A stretch of DNA of 64,000 bases from Streptomyces sp. SID13031 (GTDB lineage Bacteria; Actinomycetota; Actinomycetes; Propionibacteriales; Kribbellaceae), in NCBI RefSeq assembly GCF_010548305.1, contig NZ_JAAGLV010000024.1, positions 62,001-126,000 of the forward strand, given 5' to 3'. Numbering within the stretch: the stretch's first letter is position 1; every line of letters starts with the position of its first letter. The translations under genes were made by a program, and so were the position numbers. The notes below the pieces were generated by a model, which was not told the origin of the DNA, searched no databases, and was given only the letters and a program-made list of their open reading frames with translations. Positions 54,653 through 62,801 of this stretch are shown here, piece by piece.

Positions 54653-54740
54653 CTCTACTCCTCTGTGGTGCTGTGAGGGTGGGTGATGACTCGAAGCCTG
54701 GTCTTCTATCGGTACCTTCGCCCCAGTGCGACTACCTGGG

Positions 54741-54786
54741 TCAGCCCCCGGGGTTTCGGTACCCCGGGGGCTGACCCCCGGGGTAC
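54741..54786. repeat. Three-segment palindrome with alternative pairing
   Basis: Segment A (54741-54754, TCAGCCCCCGGGGT) is perfectly complementary to segment B (54761-54774, ACCCCGGGGGCTGA) across a 6-nt loop. The core of B, starting at 54759 (GTACCCCGGGGG), is also perfectly complementary to segment C (54775-54786, CCCCCGGGGTAC) across 4 nt. The two stems are mutually exclusive. Lying between the large LuxR gene and the epoxide hydrolases, the element could be a terminator or an attenuator-like switch on the minus-strand transcript. Confidence 0.65.
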
Positions 54787-54799
54787 CGGCCGCGCGTTT

Positions 54800-57607
54800 T
54801 CAGGCCGGCGGGGCCGGGCGATCGGGCCGGGCGAGGGTGGCCGTCAGCTGCCGGCGGGACCGGATCCCGAGCTTGCCGAAGACGTTGCCCAGATGCCACT
54901 CGACCGTTCGCGGGCTCACGAAGAGCCGGGCCCCGATCTCCGGGTTGGACAGCCCGTCGCGGGCCAGCTCCGCGATCTGCCGCTCTTGTGCGGTCAGCTC
55001 GTCCTGGGCTTCGACCGTCCGCTTGCGTACCTTCTCACCGATCGCCTGGAGCTCGGTCCGGGCGCGTTCGGCGAACGCCTCCATCCCCATCCCGGCCAGC
55101 ATTTCGTACGCCGTGCGGAGCTGCTCGCGTCCCTGAGCCTGGTGGTTCTGCTGGCACAGCCATTCACCGTAGAGCAGGTGGGCGCGGGCGAGATCCGGGC
55201 GCAGCGGGGTGCGGCCCAATCGCTCGATCGCCTCGCGATACAGCGCGGCAGCGGTCGACCCGTCGCTCAGTATCGCCCGGGCGCGCGCCTCGATCCCGAG
55301 CGCGGCATCGGTTCCGCAGGGTTGCGTCGTCTTCGCCAGCCGGTCGAGGGTCTCCTGAGCGAGCTCGGGGTCACCGGCGCGCGCCGCGGCTTCGACGAGT
55401 TCGGGGAGCACCCACATGAACGTGATCGGGTTCATGATCTCCGAGGCGGCCTGCCGGGCGGCAGTGACTGCCTCGTCGTAGCGAGCCAGTCCGTTGAACA
55501 GCACGGCGGCGGCCCAGTTCGCCGAGACCGTCGCCATCCCCTGCCCACTCACCGCGGCCAGCTCGATCGCGCCGGCGATCAGCGGCGAGGTGTCGTCTTC
55601 TCTTCCCTGCAACGCTCGCAGCCTCAGTAGGGTGTACGGCGCGATGGGGCTGCCGATCGCCGCGGCGACGCTGTCGAGCTCCGAGATGAGCGAGGCCGTG
55701 CCCGCGAAGTCGCCCATCAACGGGAGTGCGATGCCGAGCTGGGACAGATAGAGCGGCAACTGCGCCAAGGCGCCCGATTCACGGACGAGCTCGACCTGCC
55801 GGATCGAGATCGCGTGGAGGCAGTCGAAGTCGAACACCATGGTGCTCGCGGTCGTTGCCATCCAGCCCCAGCGCAGCACGTCGCCGACCGGTATCCGGGT
55901 GAGTACTTCGGCGGCCTGCCGCAAGGTCGTGGCCGCCGCGGCGTGCCCGCCCGTGGTCACCCGGGCAAGGCCGTCGAGCAACACCTCGAGAGGACGGGGT
56001 TCACCCGGTGACGCGGGAAGTGCCTGGACCGCGCGACAGACCTCCAGGCGCGTCTCCACTCCGGAGACTTCTCCGGCCATCCCGGTCGAGCCCCATGCCA
56101 TCAGGTAGGTCTCGCGGGCAAGGTCCAGGTCGAACGGCTCGAGCCGCCGCGCGGCCTTCAGCAGCAGCGGTGGCGCTGCGCTGCCAAGACCTGAGGCGAA
56201 GGCGACATGGCCGCGGAGCAGGTCGCCACGAGCGCTCTGGAACTCGTCGAGGTCCGCGGTCTCCGCGCTGGCCAACAGCCCGAGAGCCGCGTCGAAGTCC
56301 CCGGCCTGGAAGGTAGCCTCGGCAGCGGCGAGCGCTCTGTCGGCCCGCCGGTCCTTCTCTGCGGTCAGGGCGAGCGCACGGCGAAGGAAAGCCGCGCTGG
56401 CGGCAAGCCCACCGCGGGCCTGCGCTCGTCCGGCCGAACGCTCGAGCTCCTGCGCGACCTCCTCATCGGGGCCTGCCGCCGCAGCAGCCAGGTGCCACGC
56501 GCGACGATCCGGGTCGGTCTCCCGATCTGTCACCTCCGCCAACGCGAGGTGGACGGCTCGGCGCTCCTCCGGCGCCGCTGATCCGTACACAGCCGAGCGC
56601 ACCAGCGGATGCCGGAAGGTGACCTGCTCGCCGATGGCCAGCAGCCCCTGCATTTCTTCGCCTCCCGCGGCGGCCGGCCCGAGACCGATACGCCCGGCCG
56701 CGCGCCACAGCAGCAGCGAGTCGCCGATCGGCTCGGCCGCCGCGACCAGCAGCAGCCGGCGGGAGTCTTCCGCGAGCGCCTCGAGTCGGCGAACGAAGCT
56801 CTCCTCGATCCGTCCGGTCAGTGCCCGAGGCTCGATCTGGAGCTCGGTCTGCGGCTCGGCCTGGGCCGCCAACAGGCCGAAGCCGCCCGCCAGCTGCGTC
56901 GCCGTCAGTCCTCGCGGCAGCTCGAGCAAGGCCAGCGGATTCCCCCGGGTCTCGGCGACGATCCGGTCCCGGACCTGCTCGTCGAGCCTGAATGGCACAG
57001 CCGACCTCAGCAGTGCGCGAGCGTCGTCGCTCGGCAGGCCGGTCACCTCCAGCGCCGGGATGGGCTGCAGGTGTGCACCCGGGTCGCGTGCAGCGAACAC
57101 GAGCCCCACTTGCTCCGCCAGCAAACGCCGGGCCACGAAGGCGAGAGTCTGCGCCGACGCCTGGTCCAGCCATTGCGCGTCATCGACGACGCACAGCAGC
57201 GGACGCTGCTCCGAGGCTGCGGACAGCAGACTGAGAACGGCCAGGCCCACCAGGAAGCGATCCGGTGGAGGTCCAGCGCTCAGGCCGAACACGATCCGCA
57301 GCGCATCCCGCTGTGGGGTGGGGATCGTGTCCAGCCTGTCGAGTAGCGGCGCGCACAGCTGATGGAGGCTGGCGTAGGCCAGCTCCATCTCCGATTCCAC
57401 TCCCGCTGCCTGCACGATGGCCAGGTCGGACGCGGACGCGGACAGGTACTGCAACAGCGCTGTCTTCCCGATCCCCGCCTCGCCCCGCAGTACCAGCGAG
57501 CGGCTCTCGCCGCCGCGGATGGCCGAGATCACGCCGTCCAGGAACCCACACTCCCGGTTCCGGCCGAGCAGACCACGAGCTGAAGCGAATCCGGCAGAAC
57601 CTTCCAT
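54800..57607 (-). CDS. Large LuxR-family ATPase regulator (LAL type) 1
   Basis: Regulator of about 935 aa. An N-terminal AAA/STAND ATPase has Walker A LVLRGEAGIGKTALLQYL near residue 38 and Walker B LLCVVDDAQWLDQASA near 140. A long helical TPR-like middle follows. The C-terminal LuxR HTH reads LTAQERQIAELARDGLSNPE, then IGARLFVSPRTVEWHL. I chose ATG 57607, which follows GGGGAGG; the frame stays open to GTG 57676. Such LAL proteins are often pathway-specific activators. It probably acts on the adjacent hydrolases (inference) and is a paralog of the next gene. Confidence 0.92.
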   Translation of the reverse strand: MEGSAGFASARGLLGRNRECGFLDGVISAIRGGESRSLVLRGEAGIGKTALLQYLSASASDLAIVQAAGVESEMELAYASLHQLCAPLLDRLDTIPTPQRDALRIVFGLSAGPPPDRFLVGLAVLSLLSAASEQRPLLCVVDDAQWLDQASAQTLAFVARRLLAEQVGLVFAARDPGAHLQPIPALEVTGLPSDDARALLRSAVPFRLDEQVRDRIVAETRGNPLALLELPRGLTATQLAGGFGLLAAQAEPQTELQIEPRALTGRIEESFVRRLEALAEDSRRLLLVAAAEPIGDSLLLWRAAGRIGLGPAAAGGEEMQGLLAIGEQVTFRHPLVRSAVYGSAAPEERRAVHLALAEVTDRETDPDRRAWHLAAAAAGPDEEVAQELERSAGRAQARGGLAASAAFLRRALALTAEKDRRADRALAAAEATFQAGDFDAALGLLASAETADLDEFQSARGDLLRGHVAFASGLGSAAPPLLLKAARRLEPFDLDLARETYLMAWGSTGMAGEVSGVETRLEVCRAVQALPASPGEPRPLEVLLDGLARVTTGGHAAAATTLRQAAEVLTRIPVGDVLRWGWMATTASTMVFDFDCLHAISIRQVELVRESGALAQLPLYLSQLGIALPLMGDFAGTASLISELDSVAAAIGSPIAPYTLLRLRALQGREDDTSPLIAGAIELAAVSGQGMATVSANWAAAVLFNGLARYDEAVTAARQAASEIMNPITFMWVLPELVEAAARAGDPELAQETLDRLAKTTQPCGTDAALGIEARARAILSDGSTAAALYREAIERLGRTPLRPDLARAHLLYGEWLCQQNHQAQGREQLRTAYEMLAGMGMEAFAERARTELQAIGEKVRKRTVEAQDELTAQERQIAELARDGLSNPEIGARLFVSPRTVEWHLGNVFGKLGIRSRRQLTATLARPDRPAPPA

Positions 57608-57750
57608 CGCCGATGACCTCCCCGGTGACCGCGCGGACCTCAGCCATCCAAGACCGGACAGATGGCCGGGTGCCACGTCGAAGGCCGCTCCCTGGGTCGC
57701 GGCGTCGGCCCAGGCTACTGCGCTAGACCGGATGACTTCCAGTGGTCTGG

Positions 57751-57771: not shown

Positions 57772-60642
57772 TCACCCGGCCGGCATACCCAGTTGGTCGA
57801 CGGACGGATGCCTTCTCAGCTGTCGGCGGGTGGTGACTCCGAGCTTGCTGAAGACCTTGCGGAGGTGCCACTCGACCGTGCGCCGGCTCAGGTAGAGAGC
57901 CGCTGCGATCTCCGGGTTGCTGAGGCCCTCGGCGGCCAGCCGCGCGATATGACCTTCTTGATCGGTCAGGTCCTGCTGGGTCTCGACCGTCCGCCGGCGG
58001 ACCGTCTCACCGGTCGCGGCCAGCTCACGACGTGCGCGCTCGGCGAACGCCTCGACACCCATCGCGCTGAACGACTCATGCGCTGTCCGCAGCTCGCATC
58101 GCGCATCGGCACGGCGATTTCGGCGACGCAACCATTCGCCGTAGAGCAGCCGCGCTCGCGCCAATTCGACCTGGATCCTGGTACGGCCGAGCCTGTCGAT
58201 CGCCTCCCGGTAGAGCTCCTCGGCGGAGTCGCCGTCGCGCAGCAGTGCACCCCTGGCCGCAGCGACTCCGAGCGCGTAGTCGGTGCCGCTTGCACGGGTC
58301 ATTTCCGACAGCAGGTCGAACGCGCCGGCGGCAACGTCGGCCTTGCCACTACGCACTCCAGCCTCGACCAACTCGGCGAGTGCCCATTTGGTCGGGCCCA
58401 GCTCCAGCGGTTCGGTGGCCGCCTCCTGTGCGGCGACCAAGGCGTCGTCGTACCGGCCGAGACCGTTGCAGAGGAGGGCACGGGCCGCGTTCATCATGGT
58501 GAGCCCGACTCCTTGTCCGCTGGCGGTCGCGTCGTTGATAGTCGCCTGGATCAGCTGCCCGGCCTGCGACTCGTGCCCTCGCATGGCCGCGAGCCACGAC
58601 GCGGGGATCGGGGTCAGCACGTTCTCACCACCCGTCACCTCCGCTATCCAGTTGCTCTCGGCAACCAAAGATCCGGCAGCGGCCAGGTTGCCGCTGTGGA
58701 TGTCGAAGATCGCGCGACTGGCCAGCGCGAGTGGAAGCAAGCTCAAAGCTCCTGCTTTGCGGACCACCTCCAGATGCCGCCGGCTCAGCACGTCCCAGTG
58801 CACGTCATCCCACAGGTCGACGGCCGCGACCGCCGCCACCCAGGCGCTCCTGAACGCCTCCTCGACGGTCAGGTCCTCACTGCCGAACGCCTGGATCGCC
58901 CGGTGTAGCGGGCCTGCCGATGCAACGTAGCCATCGGTGTACAGGATGGCCATCCCCTCGAGCAGCAGATCGGCCTTGCTCGGTGCCTCAGCTCTGGGCG
59001 CGGTACGAGCTGCCTGAGCCACTTGCCGCATACCGGGGCCCGGCCCAGGTGCCAGTCGTCCGGCGAACAGAGCCGCGGACAACGCATCAAGGTAGGTTCC
59101 GCGCGCGACCGCACCGTCCAGCGATTCGAATCTGCGAGCGGCCGCCAGCATCAGCGGCAGAGCCTGGTTGCCATGGATCGAGTTGTACGAGATCTGCGCC
59201 CGCAGGAGATCCACCCGCGCGAGTTCAGCCTCGGCCAATGGGCCCGACTGGGCGAAGGCCAAGAGTTTGTAGGCGTCTTCGAATGCCCCGGCGCCCGCCT
59301 TGGCCTGGGCAGCGGCGAGCGAGCGTTGCGCCCGCCGTATGGGGTCAGGCGTCAACGACGCGGCGGTCTCGTGGAAGGCAGCCGCCGCGGCAAGACCGCC
59401 CAGCGACACCGCCCGATCGGCTGAGCTTTCGAGTTCCGCCGCAACTGCTTCGTCCGGACCCAGCGCCGCACTCGCGCGGTGCCAGGCGTGGCGGTCAGGA
59501 CTGGCTTCGGCGTCTGTGGCATCAGCCAACGCCCGGTGCACTTGCCGCCGTTCCGCCGGCGTCGCGGACTGGTACATGGCCGACCGAACCAGCGGATGCC
59601 GGAAACGGACCCGGTCATGGAACTCGATCAGACCGGCTTCCTCAGCCGTCGCCGCCACGTCGGCCTCGATCCCCAGCTCCTCAGCGGCCCGCCACAGCAG
59701 CGGGATGTCGCCGACGGGTTCCGCGGCCGCGACCAGCAACAGCAGTCGTGTCTGCGGTGGCAGGCTCGCCAACTGCCGGATGAAGCCTTGCTCGAGCCGG
59801 TTGATCAACGGGCCTGTACTTCGCGCCGCCGCCGTACCGAACGCCAACTCGGCCGCGGTGAGCACCCGAGGGAGCTCGAGCAGAGCCAGCGGGTTGCCGT
59901 TGGATTCGGCGAGGATGCGATCTCGTACCCGGGGGTCGAGTGTGCCGGGGACCGCCGACTCGAGCAGCGCGGCCGCGTCCTCGGTCCCCAGCCCACGCAA
60001 CTGAAGCTCGGGAAGGCCGGCCAGCTTGGGCTCCTGATCGGTCTCTCGTACTGCGAAGACCAGTCCCAGCGGCTCTGCATCGAGCCGGCGAGCCACGAAC
60101 TCCAACGCCTGCGCAGACGCCTGGTCCAGCCACTGCGCGTCGTCGATGACGCAGATCAACGGCTGCTCCTCGGCGACACCGGCGAGCAGCGTCAGCGCCG
60201 CCAGCCCGACGAGGAAGCGGTCCGGTGCGCCGCCGCCCTGCAGCCCGAACACGGTTCTGAGTGCGTCTCGTTGCGGCAGCGGGAGGCTGTCGAGCCGGTC
60301 GAGGTACGGGCCGCAGAGCTGGTGCAGTCCGGCATACGGGAGTTCGAGTTCGGACTCGACACCCGCCGCCCGGCCGAGCTGGCATCGGCCCGCGCCCTCG
60401 ACGAGAAAGTCGAGCAGGGCGGTCTTTCCGATGCCCGCCTCACCGCGGAGTACCAGGACCTGGCTCCGGTTGGCCTGCACTGCAGCCACCAGACCGGCCA
60501 GGGTCTTGCATTCGTTCTGCCGTCCCCGCAGGGCAGCCCAGAAGACTGCAGGCGAGGTGGACGGCCTCGCGGAAGGCACGGAGCCGAGGACCGCCACTCG
60601 CCCCAGGAACGCCGTCGTTTCGTCGTGATCAGGCATTGCCAT
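57772..60642 (-). CDS. Large LuxR-family ATPase regulator (LAL type) 2
   Basis: Regulator of about 956 aa, paralogous to the preceding one. Walker A is LVLRGEAGIGKTALLDFLVE near residue 75, and Walker B is LICVIDDAQWLDQASAQALE near 175. Parallel motifs AAGVESELELPYAGLHQLCG and LFAVRETD-like segments follow. The C-terminal HTH reads LTDQEGHIARLAAEGLSNPE, then IAAALYLSRRTVEWHLRK. ATG 60642 with GAGAGG upstream is favoured over GTG 60645. The two genes lie head to tail, separated by 164 bp, and probably arose by duplication. Confidence 0.92.
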   Translation of the reverse strand: MAMPDHDETTAFLGRVAVLGSVPSARPSTSPAVFWAALRGRQNECKTLAGLVAAVQANRSQVLVLRGEAGIGKTALLDFLVEGAGRCQLGRAAGVESELELPYAGLHQLCGPYLDRLDSLPLPQRDALRTVFGLQGGGAPDRFLVGLAALTLLAGVAEEQPLICVIDDAQWLDQASAQALEFVARRLDAEPLGLVFAVRETDQEPKLAGLPELQLRGLGTEDAAALLESAVPGTLDPRVRDRILAESNGNPLALLELPRVLTAAELAFGTAAARSTGPLINRLEQGFIRQLASLPPQTRLLLLVAAAEPVGDIPLLWRAAEELGIEADVAATAEEAGLIEFHDRVRFRHPLVRSAMYQSATPAERRQVHRALADATDAEASPDRHAWHRASAALGPDEAVAAELESSADRAVSLGGLAAAAAFHETAASLTPDPIRRAQRSLAAAQAKAGAGAFEDAYKLLAFAQSGPLAEAELARVDLLRAQISYNSIHGNQALPLMLAAARRFESLDGAVARGTYLDALSAALFAGRLAPGPGPGMRQVAQAARTAPRAEAPSKADLLLEGMAILYTDGYVASAGPLHRAIQAFGSEDLTVEEAFRSAWVAAVAAVDLWDDVHWDVLSRRHLEVVRKAGALSLLPLALASRAIFDIHSGNLAAAGSLVAESNWIAEVTGGENVLTPIPASWLAAMRGHESQAGQLIQATINDATASGQGVGLTMMNAARALLCNGLGRYDDALVAAQEAATEPLELGPTKWALAELVEAGVRSGKADVAAGAFDLLSEMTRASGTDYALGVAAARGALLRDGDSAEELYREAIDRLGRTRIQVELARARLLYGEWLRRRNRRADARCELRTAHESFSAMGVEAFAERARRELAATGETVRRRTVETQQDLTDQEGHIARLAAEGLSNPEIAAALYLSRRTVEWHLRKVFSKLGVTTRRQLRRHPSVDQLGMPAG

Positions 60643-60783
60643 CACTGACCTCTCGAAGGGCCTTCAGGCACTACGCGCGGAAGGCATACGTCCATGCTCT
60701 TCAGGCAGCACGTACTCCGCGTCCGTCACCTGACGCTGTCGATGACGTAATTCGCGCCAGTCGGCGACGGGGTGTGACGGCTC

Positions 60784-61767
60784 TCAGGACGGCATTCCGT
60801 AGTAGGCGGTGACCGCGGCGGCGCGGTCGCGCAGAGAGGTGCGCAACCACTGCGGGCCCAGGGCTTCCGCGTTCGTGGAGAGCTGCCACAGTGCCCATTC
60901 GGCGTGTCTCGGATCTTGGAAAGTCAGCTCCAGCCGCAGCCAGCCGCCCGCCTCGATTTCCTCGGCTTCTTCGGCGAGAACAGCCAGTGCGGTGCCCACC
61001 AGGTCCTCCCGCCGGGCCGGGTTCACCCGTACCAGCACGGTGACCTGGTCGGAGCCGGCCCGGAATTGCGTGCTGCGTTCCTGCCAGGCCCGATCCAGAT
61101 CGACCAGGTCTGGTCGCTGTGCGGGCTCGGCGAGTACCTCGGCGGCCAACACCCGGGACAGCCGGTACGTGCGATCCGCGCCAGATTTCGTGGCCAGCAG
61201 GTAACCCTGGTCTCGTACCGTGACCAAACCGATCGGGTCCACCGTGCGCCACTCCGGGGTCTGGTTCACCGCCGCGTAGCGGATGCGCAGCCGGTGTCCG
61301 GCGAACACCGCGCGACGGACCTGAGCCACCACGGCGTCCGGCACCTCCTCAACGACCAGCCGGCGCGAGAGGAGATCGGTCTCCGGGTCGATCAGCAAGC
61401 GCTGGGCCGCGCCGGTCGCGGTGGCCCGATAGCTTTCAGGAAGCGCGTCGACCACCTTGCGCATGGCCGAAGCGAGCGCCGAGCCGAGGCCGAACGCCTG
61501 CGCGCCGCGCCGTGATCCGGCGACCAGCAGGGCGAGCGCCTCGTCGTGATTCAGTCCGGTGAGCTCGGTCTGGAAACCGGGCAGCAAGGCAAACCCGCCG
61601 TGCCGGCCGCGCTCGGCGTAGACCGGGACGCCTGCTGCGGACAGCGCCTCGATGTCGCGCAGCACGGTCCGGGTGGAGACCTCCAGCTCGCGGGCCAGCC
61701 TGCCCGCGGACAACCGACCGTGCTGGCGCAGCAGCAGCACCAGCGATACCAACCGGTCGGCGCGCAT
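60784..61767 (-). CDS. WYL-domain transcriptional regulator
   Basis: YafY/DeoR-like regulator of 327 aa. The N-terminal winged HTH reads LVSLVLLLRQHGRLSAGRLA, then RELEVSTRTVLRDIEALSAA. The WYL domain is at about 140-230 (RLRIRYAAVNQTPEWRTVDP, then GYLLATKSGADRTYRLSRV), followed by a WCX extension (GGWLRLELTFQDPRHAEWAL). WYL proteins bind nucleic acids or ligands and often repress their neighbours. A TAAAGT box ends 6 nt before ATG 61767, and a perfect 31-bp inverted repeat lies just upstream. Confidence 0.92.
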   Translation of the reverse strand: MRADRLVSLVLLLRQHGRLSAGRLARELEVSTRTVLRDIEALSAAGVPVYAERGRHGGFALLPGFQTELTGLNHDEALALLVAGSRRGAQAFGLGSALASAMRKVVDALPESYRATATGAAQRLLIDPETDLLSRRLVVEEVPDAVVAQVRRAVFAGHRLRIRYAAVNQTPEWRTVDPIGLVTVRDQGYLLATKSGADRTYRLSRVLAAEVLAEPAQRPDLVDLDRAWQERSTQFRAGSDQVTVLVRVNPARREDLVGTALAVLAEEAEEIEAGGWLRLELTFQDPRHAEWALWQLSTNAEALGPQWLRTSLRDRAAAVTAYYGMPS

Positions 61768-61773
61768 ACCGAA

Positions 61774-61779
61774 ACTTTA
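61774..61779 (-). promoter_or_regulatory. -10 box TAAAGT, leaderless WYL regulator gene
   Basis: On the minus strand TAAAGT ends 6 nt before ATG 61767. It abuts the palindromic operator, so binding there should affect this promoter. Confidence 0.5.
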
Positions 61780-61781
61780 CC

Positions 61782-61812
61782 GCGATACACGACAGAGGGT
61801 GTCGTGTATCGC
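61782..61812. promoter_or_regulatory. 31-bp operator between WYL regulator and ridA
   Basis: GCGATACACGACA (61782-61794) and TGTCGTGTATCGC (61800-61812) are perfect 13-bp inverted repeats with a 5-bp spacer. The site lies between the divergent WYL regulator and RidA genes. It is the strongest candidate for the regulator's own target. Confidence 0.8.
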
Positions 61813-61888
61813 TGGGAGGCTCATCAACACGACGTCAAGAAGACAGTGGTCACCGAGGCCGACGTCGGTGAAGCGAAATGGAGCTGAT

Positions 61889-62290
61889 GTGGCGATCGAG
61901 CGAACGGCGATCAACCCGTGGACGTGGTCGGAAGGGCTGGGATACAACCAGGGTGAAGTGGTCTCCGGGCAGACCCGGACCTTGTACTGCTCCGGGCAGA
62001 CCGCGATGAGCGGCGACGGCAAACCTCAGCACGCCGGTGACATGGCAGCGCAGCTGGCGCTGAGTCTCGACAACCTGGAGGCCGTTCTCGGTGAGGCCGG
62101 CATGTCCCTCGCGAACCTCGTCCGGCTCAGCGTCTACACCACCGACGTCGATCAGCTCTTCGGCCATTACGGCCTGCTGGCGTCGAGATTGGGCGCCGCC
62201 GGGGTAGCCCCGACCACCACCATGCTCGGCGTAACCCGACTGGCCATCCCCGACCCACTGGTCGAACTCGAAGGAACAGCCGTCGCCTGA
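61889..62290 (+). CDS. RidA-family protein
   Basis: Protein of 133 aa of the RidA/YjgF/TdcF fold, whose members deaminate reactive enamines and imines. Family motifs: YCSGQTAMSGDGKPQHAGDM, QLALSLDNLEAVLGEAGMSL and NLVRLSVYTTDVDQL near residue 71. The Arg in NLVRLSVY and the closing EGTAVA are in place. GTG 61889 follows GGAG at 6 nt. It is probably controlled by the divergent WYL regulator. Confidence 0.92.
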   Translation: MAIERTAINPWTWSEGLGYNQGEVVSGQTRTLYCSGQTAMSGDGKPQHAGDMAAQLALSLDNLEAVLGEAGMSLANLVRLSVYTTDVDQLFGHYGLLASRLGAAGVAPTTTMLGVTRLAIPDPLVELEGTAVA

Positions 62291-62369: not shown

Positions 62370-62801
62370 ATGCGGATTTCCGTTTCCTCGGACATGGACC
62401 TGCCCGTGGCGCGCTCACTCGTCACGGAGCTACGCAGCCGTGGCCATGAAGTCACCACGTATGGCGCACTGGCCCCCGGCGACGATCCCCAATGGGCAGT
62501 CTGCACCGAGGCAGCGGCCCGCGACCTCGCCGCGGGGAACGCCGACCAGGCGGTCGTGTGCTGCTGGACCGGCACTGGCGCCTCCATCGCAGCGAACAAG
62601 GTGCCGGGAGTCCGCGCGGCCCTGTGCACAGACGCATACACGGCCGAGGGTGCCCGTCGCTGGAACGACGCCAACGCACTGGCCCTCAGCCTCCGCCTGA
62701 CCTCCGAACCACTACTCAACGAGATTCTCGACGCCTGGTTCGCCGCCGAACCGAGCAAGGACGAAGCAGACCGCCAGAACATCGCACGCGTCAGCCGCTA
62801 A
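62370..62801 (+). CDS. RpiB/LacA/LacB-family isomerase
   Basis: Protein of 143 aa of the RpiB fold, which interconverts ribose 5-phosphate and ribulose 5-phosphate or related sugar phosphates. The N-terminus MRISVSSDMDLPVARSLVTE lacks the usual DHAG spacing. VVCCWTGTGASIAANKVPGV near residue 66 carries the active-site Cys and the GTG-SIAANK motif, followed by RAALCTDAYTAEGARRWNDA. The family match is clear, but the substrate may differ from standard RpiB. Leaderless start likely. Confidence 0.85.
   Translation: MRISVSSDMDLPVARSLVTELRSRGHEVTTYGALAPGDDPQWAVCTEAAARDLAAGNADQAVVCCWTGTGASIAANKVPGVRAALCTDAYTAEGARRWNDANALALSLRLTSEPLLNEILDAWFAAEPSKDEADRQNIARVSR

What the first reader, a model, noticed from the sequence alone, without database searches (positions are those of the whole stretch)
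61774..61889. 31-bp perfect palindrome as likely operator of a WYL regulator controlling ridA
A 13-bp perfect inverted repeat with 5-bp spacer fills the divergent spacer of WYL regulator and ridA. WYL regulator operators and ligands are poorly known; coupling to an enamine/imine deaminase suggests a metabolite-damage sensor.
Basis: partly seen in the sequence, partly recalled or inferred. Interest (0 to 1): 0.6.

Follow-up and report, generated by a model that had tools for sequence, protein, structure and literature searches.

The report
Conserved operator of a WYL regulator
A short mirror-image DNA site between two genes in a soil actinomycete is almost certainly the docking site of the neighbouring regulator protein, because the same site has been kept in front of the same regulator in over a hundred relatives even where the gene it controls has been swapped for another.

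Summary
In detail: 13-bp perfect arms with a 5-nt spacer at 61782-61812, in the 121-bp divergent spacer of a WYL regulator (60784-61767, -) and a Rid-family gene (61889-62290, +). The operator reading is strongly supported. In 108 of 110 WYL orthologue loci (Kribbella, Streptomyces, Nocardia, Frankia, Nonomuraea and others) the site AWWCACGACA-YCCTS-TGTCGTGTATT lies 9-19 nt before the regulator start, its GAC...GTC nearly invariant. The long perfect arms are incidental (10 or more perfect pairs in 7 of 108); an imperfect dyad and its spacer are conserved. The operator stays while the partner changes: rid, SnoaL-like, VOC-like, an Arg-less Rid, or DUF488. DUF488 and TraR/DksA-like genes carry the same site away from the regulator. 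The window's rid leader keeps a scar of a SnoaL gene start. So this is a regulon operator, not a ridA-specific one, and the 'metabolite-damage sensor' idea lacks support. Invariant Sm-loop arginines, a leaderless TAnnnT regulator promoter and a TGTC half-site near -26 suggest that it works like the genotoxic-stress WYL factors SiwR and PafBC; that mechanism is inferred. No paper found here describes this regulator, operator or regulon.

The parts
61782..61812 (.). Operator dyad: 13-bp perfect arms, 5-nt spacer; conserved core CACGACA-N5-TGTCGTG plus A/T-rich outer bases
60784..61767 (-). WYL-domain transcriptional regulator (HTH_11 + WYL + WCX), 327 aa; R199, R202, R205 invariant in 109 orthologues
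61774..61779 (-). Predicted -10 element TAAAGT, 6 nt before the WYL start codon, so a leaderless transcript; TAnnnT 5-7 nt before the start in 97 of 108 orthologues
61813..61821 (+). Conserved TGGGAGGCT next to the dyad; Shine-Dalgarno of the partner gene in SnoaL-type loci, apparently vestigial in rid-type loci
61827..61860 (+). Scar of a SnoaL-like gene start (ATGACnAACAAGA..GTGGCTACCGAGCC in relatives; ATG is ACG here)
61880..61888 (+). Conserved Shine-Dalgarno GGAG and spacer before the GTG start of the rid gene
61889..62290 (+). Rid-family (Ribonuc_L-PSP) protein, 133 aa; R117 aligns with R105 of E. coli RidA

Best explanation
The dyad is the operator of the WYL regulator encoded next to it. 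A regulator homodimer sits on CACGACA-N5-TGTCGTG, each HTH reading one half-site, and so controls both its own leaderless promoter and the divergent partner promoter. Strongly supported by conservation: the site belongs to this regulator and defines a small regulon (rid or SnoaL-like gene, DUF488, sometimes a TraR/DksA-like gene). Inferred: the WYL domains bind a stress ligand, most likely single-stranded nucleic acid as in SiwR and PafBC, and the bound dimer then switches on the divergent promoters, because half-sites fall near -26 and the WYL promoter has no recognisable -35. Not determined: activator versus repressor, the ligand, and the substrate of the Rid protein.
For: Site in 108 of 110 orthologue loci, 9-19 nt before the WYL start; GAC in 108, GTC in 107-108 of 108. 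Class-wide scan: 45 of 395 genomes have the site, none has the reversed control; of the 29 further loci read, 25 have a WYL orthologue (65% or more) and one a 48% homologue. Trans sites: DUF488 in K. catacumbae (L121) and in another family (L151, WYL on another contig); TraR/DksA-like genes in two Kribbella genomes. Where a TraR gene was inserted between WYL and rid, both sides keep a site, 18/22 and 21/22 matches in L150. The 40%-identity paralogue with a DinB-type partner has TATGCGACA-N5-TGTCGCATA, same core. No compensatory changes between arms, so a DNA site. R199, R202, R205 are 109/109. TGTC to TAnnnT is 15 nt in 74 of 97 loci, against 16 in the PafBC consensus tTGTCRgtg-8-TannnT. SiwR binds a 19-bp imperfect palindrome and needs the -26 region.
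Against: No binding or expression data. The partner-side -10 is weak (TGATTY or TGTATY) and could not be fixed. The W of the WYL motif is G188 in 97 of 109, so the ligand may differ from that of SiwR. WYL factors linked to phage defence are repressors (PMC10693628), so repression is open. The expected TAnnnT is missing in 11 of 108 loci.
Confidence: 0.7

Rival explanations
1. The operator is real but the regulator is a classical repressor: the dimer covers both promoters, and a small-molecule metabolite (for example an enamine or imine substrate of Rid) releases it.
For: The dyad overlaps the -39 to -17 region of the predicted leaderless WYL promoter; Rid R117 matches R105 of RidA, so deaminase activity is plausible; W of WYL is replaced by G.
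Against: Partners are unrelated proteins behind the same operator; one Rid partner type lacks the catalytic Arg; Sm-loop arginines are invariant.
Confidence: 0.22
2. The dyad works as RNA: a hairpin in the rid leader or an attenuator.
For: 31-nt perfect hairpin potential in the window.
Against: Mismatches between arms are common and uncompensated (32 C/A against 3 T/A at one pair; 7 of 108 with arms of 10 or more); the site is conserved as sequence, spacer included. No terminator-like site.
Confidence: 0.03
3. Another DNA-binding protein uses this site and the WYL gene is only one of its targets.
For: Conservation alone does not name the binder.
Against: In Kribbella none of the 13 genomes without the orthologue has the site, except one hit at a WYL paralogue; 25 of 29 class-wide loci read hold the orthologue and one more a 48% homologue; WYL paralogues have related dyads with the same spacer at about the same place.
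Confidence: 0.05

Closest known systems
SiwR / dinS operon of Mycobacterium smegmatis (PMC10693628)
   Same: HTH-WYL-WCX regulator next to a small stress-type enzyme gene; imperfect palindrome in a short intergenic region; partners vary between species (DinB-like, glyoxalase-like); conserved Sm-loop arginines
   Different: Partners here are Rid, SnoaL-like, DUF488 and TraR/DksA-like. A separate 40%-identity paralogue in Kribbella carries a DinB-type partner and is the likelier SiwR counterpart. The SiwR sequence itself could not be compared here.
PafBC and its RecA-NDp promoter (tTGTCRgtg-8 nt-TannnT; PMC5656591)
   Same: TGTC(.)GTG half-site about 15-16 nt before a TAnnnT -10 without a clear -35; WYL arginines
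   Different: PafBC is a heterodimer on a non-palindromic site; here a single regulator gene and a dyad
BrxR / CapW WYL repressors
   Same: wHTH-WYL proteins acting at sites near their own gene (PMC9122589, PMC9122601)
   Different: Those control phage defence; no defence gene is seen in this cassette
RidA (E. coli YjgF, 1QU9)
   Same: Fold family and catalytic Arg position (R117 = R105)
   Different: Below the NCBIfam Rid detoxifying hydrolase cut-off (39.7 against 106 bits), so not RidA proper

Membership tests
WYL-domain transcription factors | N-terminal HTH, WYL domain and WCX domain | tested here: met
   Pfam HTH_11, WYL, WCX all above gathering scores
WYL-domain transcription factors | Literal Trp-Tyr-Leu motif | tested here: not met
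   Y189 and L190 invariant, but the W position is G188 in 97 of 109; the domain profile still matches, and membership rests on the profile, not on the three letters
ssDNA-sensing WYL factors (SiwR, PafBC, DriD) | Conserved arginines in the Sm-2 (beta4/beta5) loop | tested here: met
   R199, R202, R205 in 109 of 109; aligned with the R..R..R stretch of PafC
ssDNA-sensing WYL factors (SiwR, PafBC, DriD) | Binds ssDNA and activates transcription | not testable with these tools
   Needs purified protein
SiwR orthologue | DinB-superfamily partner | tested here: not met
   Partners are Rid, SnoaL_2, VOC-like, DUF488; DinB-type partner only at the 37-48% homologues
PafBC RecA-NDp promoter | tTGTCRgtg-8-TannnT | tested here: inconclusive
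   TGTCGTG-8-TAnnnT, one base shorter, in 74 of 97 loci
Rid (YjgF/YER057c/UK114) family | Ribonuc_L-PSP fold and catalytic Arg105 | tested here: met
   PF01042 E=1e-17; R117 aligned with R105 and conserved in 106 of 107
RidA proper (TIGR00004) | Score above the curated cut-off | tested here: not met
   39.7 bits against 106.25

The most novel reading that the evidence does not exclude
A portable regulator-operator module across Actinomycetes in which one WYL sensor and its fixed dyad drive an interchangeable set of small stress proteins (Rid, SnoaL-like, VOC-like, DUF488, TraR/DksA-like), activating divergent promoters by a PafBC-like -26 contact in response to nucleic-acid damage, with genes captured behind the operator by recombination that leaves scars of the previous partner.
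Probability: 0.35. Interest if true: 0.6.

Novelty: new member of a known kind. Interest (0 to 1): 0.42.

Why it matters
Few WYL operators are known. This gives a sharply defined one with over a hundred natural variants, a candidate half-site rule for the family (GACA-N5-TGTC with outer bases varying by subfamily), and a regulon that groups the unexplained DUF488 proteins and SnoaL-like proteins with a Rid deaminase. That makes the function of these proteins and the WYL signal directly testable.

Tried and rejected
RNA hairpin or terminator: no covariation, no terminator-like site. A ridA-only operator: rejected, because partners change and trans sites exist. N-terminal extension of Rid reaching back to the dyad: the frame is open in many loci but broken or without a start in others, and a conserved SD lies before the usual GTG/ATG start, so 61889 was kept. 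RpiB-like gene 62370-62801 as part of the unit: found only in the window among the loci compared. ATP-grasp gene as a regulon member: the site is present in only 2 of 11 orthologues, where it more likely serves the divergent TraR-like gene. DUF488 in the window's genome: no match. A tree count of partner changes (17-21) rests on poorly supported branches; well-supported ones force only 2. Literature searches for the motif letters brought up no WYL or operator paper among the 15 listed; WYL with DUF488 gave nothing relevant. The SiwR sequence and the letters of its palindrome were not available in text, so no letter-by-letter comparison was made. Two class-wide sites without a WYL orthologue or known partner (L161, L163; 2 mismatches) were left unexplained.

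Full report
What is there. The inverted repeat is exact: arms 61782-61794 and 61800-61812, 13 bp each, spacer GAGGG. It lies in the 121-bp gap between a 327-aa regulator on the minus strand (HTH_11, WYL and WCX domains) and a 133-aa Rid-family protein on the plus strand. About 1e-5 such dyads are expected in that gap by chance. The genome (8.5 Mb) has no second copy within 3 mismatches of the 9+9 core. The genus is Kribbella by inference: loci of same-genus genomes coincide with contigs of Kribbella catacumbae and K. steppae.

Conservation test. In the genus, 25 of 38 genomes hold an orthologue of the regulator at 73-87% identity, and all 25 hold the dyad at the same place. The Rid orthologue (75% or more) occurs in 24 of those 25, next to the regulator, and in none of the 13 genomes without the regulator; two of these have only a 52-53% homologue. 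The exception, L015, has a VOC-like gene instead. In 85 further loci, from Streptomyces, Nocardia, Frankia, Nonomuraea, Actinomadura, Micromonospora and others (two of them are Kribbella loci seen before), the same site appears. Over all loci, 108 of 110 have it, 9-19 nt (mostly 17-19) before the regulator's start; the bases GAC of the left half and the G and C of GTC in the right half are identical in all 108, the T of GTC in 107. The consensus is AWWCACGACA-YCCTS-TGTCGTGTATT. Of the two exceptions, one (L056) matches only from residue 29 of the query, so its start was not placed.

The perfect arms are not the point. Only 7 of 108 loci have 10 or more perfect pairs; most have a mismatched A/T step outside CACGACA, and the spacer is conserved too. 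At one pair (C2/G16) 32 loci carry an uncompensated C/A and 3 a T/A, so selection keeps letters, not pairing. This fits a protein-read DNA site and argues against an RNA hairpin.

The operator is not tied to ridA. Behind the same site stand a Rid protein (104 of 134 loci), a SnoaL_2 protein (19), a Rid paralogue (4; Ser in place of the catalytic Arg in the three checked), a VOC-like protein (2; named by eye, the fragment gave no Pfam match) or DUF488 (1). DUF488 also often follows rid or the SnoaL gene. Two copies of the site lie directly before DUF488 genes away from the regulator: L121 in K. catacumbae, with the regulator on another contig at least 15 kb from its ends, and L151 in a genome of another family, again with the regulator on another contig. 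In two Kribbella genomes the site lies before a TraR/DksA-type zinc-finger gene (L136, L137). In L144 and L150 a TraR/DksA-type gene has been inserted between the regulator and rid; in L150 both flanks keep a good copy of the site (18/22 and 21/22), in L144 the rid side keeps 18/22 and the regulator side a degraded one. These are natural tests that the site is wanted at each gene.

A scar of partner exchange. In SnoaL-type loci the conserved GGAGGCT beside the dyad is the Shine-Dalgarno of the gene, which begins ATGACnAACAAGA..GTGGCTACCGAGCCG. In many rid-type loci the same DNA is still there upstream of rid, usually with the ATG changed to ACG, followed by a separate conserved GGAG-N5-GTG start of rid. 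The window has this scar at about 61827-61860. The simplest reading is that rid was placed behind an operator that once served a SnoaL-like gene; the direction is inference.

How it probably works. The regulator promoter looks leaderless: TAnnnT lies 5-7 nt before the start codon in 97 of 108 loci (TAAAGT at 61774-61779 on the minus strand here), and no consensus -35/-10 promoter was found. The half-site TGTC begins 15 nt before this -10 in 74 of 97 loci, against 16 nt in the PafBC promoter consensus tTGTCRgtg-8-TannnT (PMC5656591). SiwR, a WYL activator of M. smegmatis, binds a 19-bp imperfect palindrome beside its gene and needs the -26 region; its WYL arginines are required for activation, and its WYL domain binds ssDNA (PMC10693628). 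Here the three Sm-loop arginines R199, R202 and R205 are invariant in 109 orthologues. I therefore favour a homodimer that responds to a nucleic-acid stress signal and activates divergent promoters. Supported by conservation: site, regulator linkage, regulon. Inferred: activation, ligand, -26 contact. Open: the partner-side -10, which is weak, and the role of the W to G change in the WYL motif.

Wider rule. The Kribbella paralogue at about 40% identity, with a DinB-type (MDMPI_N) partner, has TATGCGACA-N5-TGTCGCATA. Other WYL paralogues in the window's genome have related dyads with 5-nt spacers, such as TAGGACA-N5-TGTCCTA (L176) and GCGGTCA-N5-TGACCGG (L171, one mismatch) at about -45. This suggests a family grammar with shared inner bases and subfamily-specific outer bases; it rests on few cases.

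Status. The DNA-level claim is solid; the ridA-specific and metabolite-sensing claims are not. No text found in the held library describes this regulator, operator or regulon, which does not prove absence from the literature.

Noticed in passing
window 61813-61860 and upstream of rid in many relatives: DNA between the dyad and rid matches the start of a SnoaL-like gene with its ATG lost: a scar of gene exchange behind a fixed operator.
   Followed up: partly
L121 1501-2053; L151 1501-2026: DUF488 genes carry the WYL operator away from the regulator, linking this unexplained family to the WYL regulon.
   Followed up: partly
L144 1090-1485; L150 985-1317; L136/L137: TraR/DksA-type zinc-finger gene inserted between regulator and rid, or carrying its own operator copy elsewhere.
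   Followed up: partly
L171, L173, L176 upstream regions: Other WYL paralogues of the same genome have different dyads at about -45, often with 5-nt spacers, hinting at a family-wide operator grammar.
   Followed up: partly
window 54800-57676 and 57772-60645: Two large related open frames in tandem on the minus strand (958 and 957 aa; P-loop ATPase start and LuxR-type HTH end, judged by eye).
   Followed up: no
window 54738-54785: Two overlapping perfect dyads (17- and 14-bp arms) forming a strong GC-rich hairpin between genes, probably a terminator.
   Followed up: no
window 62370-62801: RpiB/LacAB-type sugar isomerase downstream of rid; not found beside rid in the relatives compared.
   Followed up: no
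L161 1501-1522; L163 1501-1522: Two class-wide operator-like sites in genomes without the WYL orthologue, with no known partner nearby; one lies near a pyridoxamine-oxidase-like frame (by eye).
   Followed up: no
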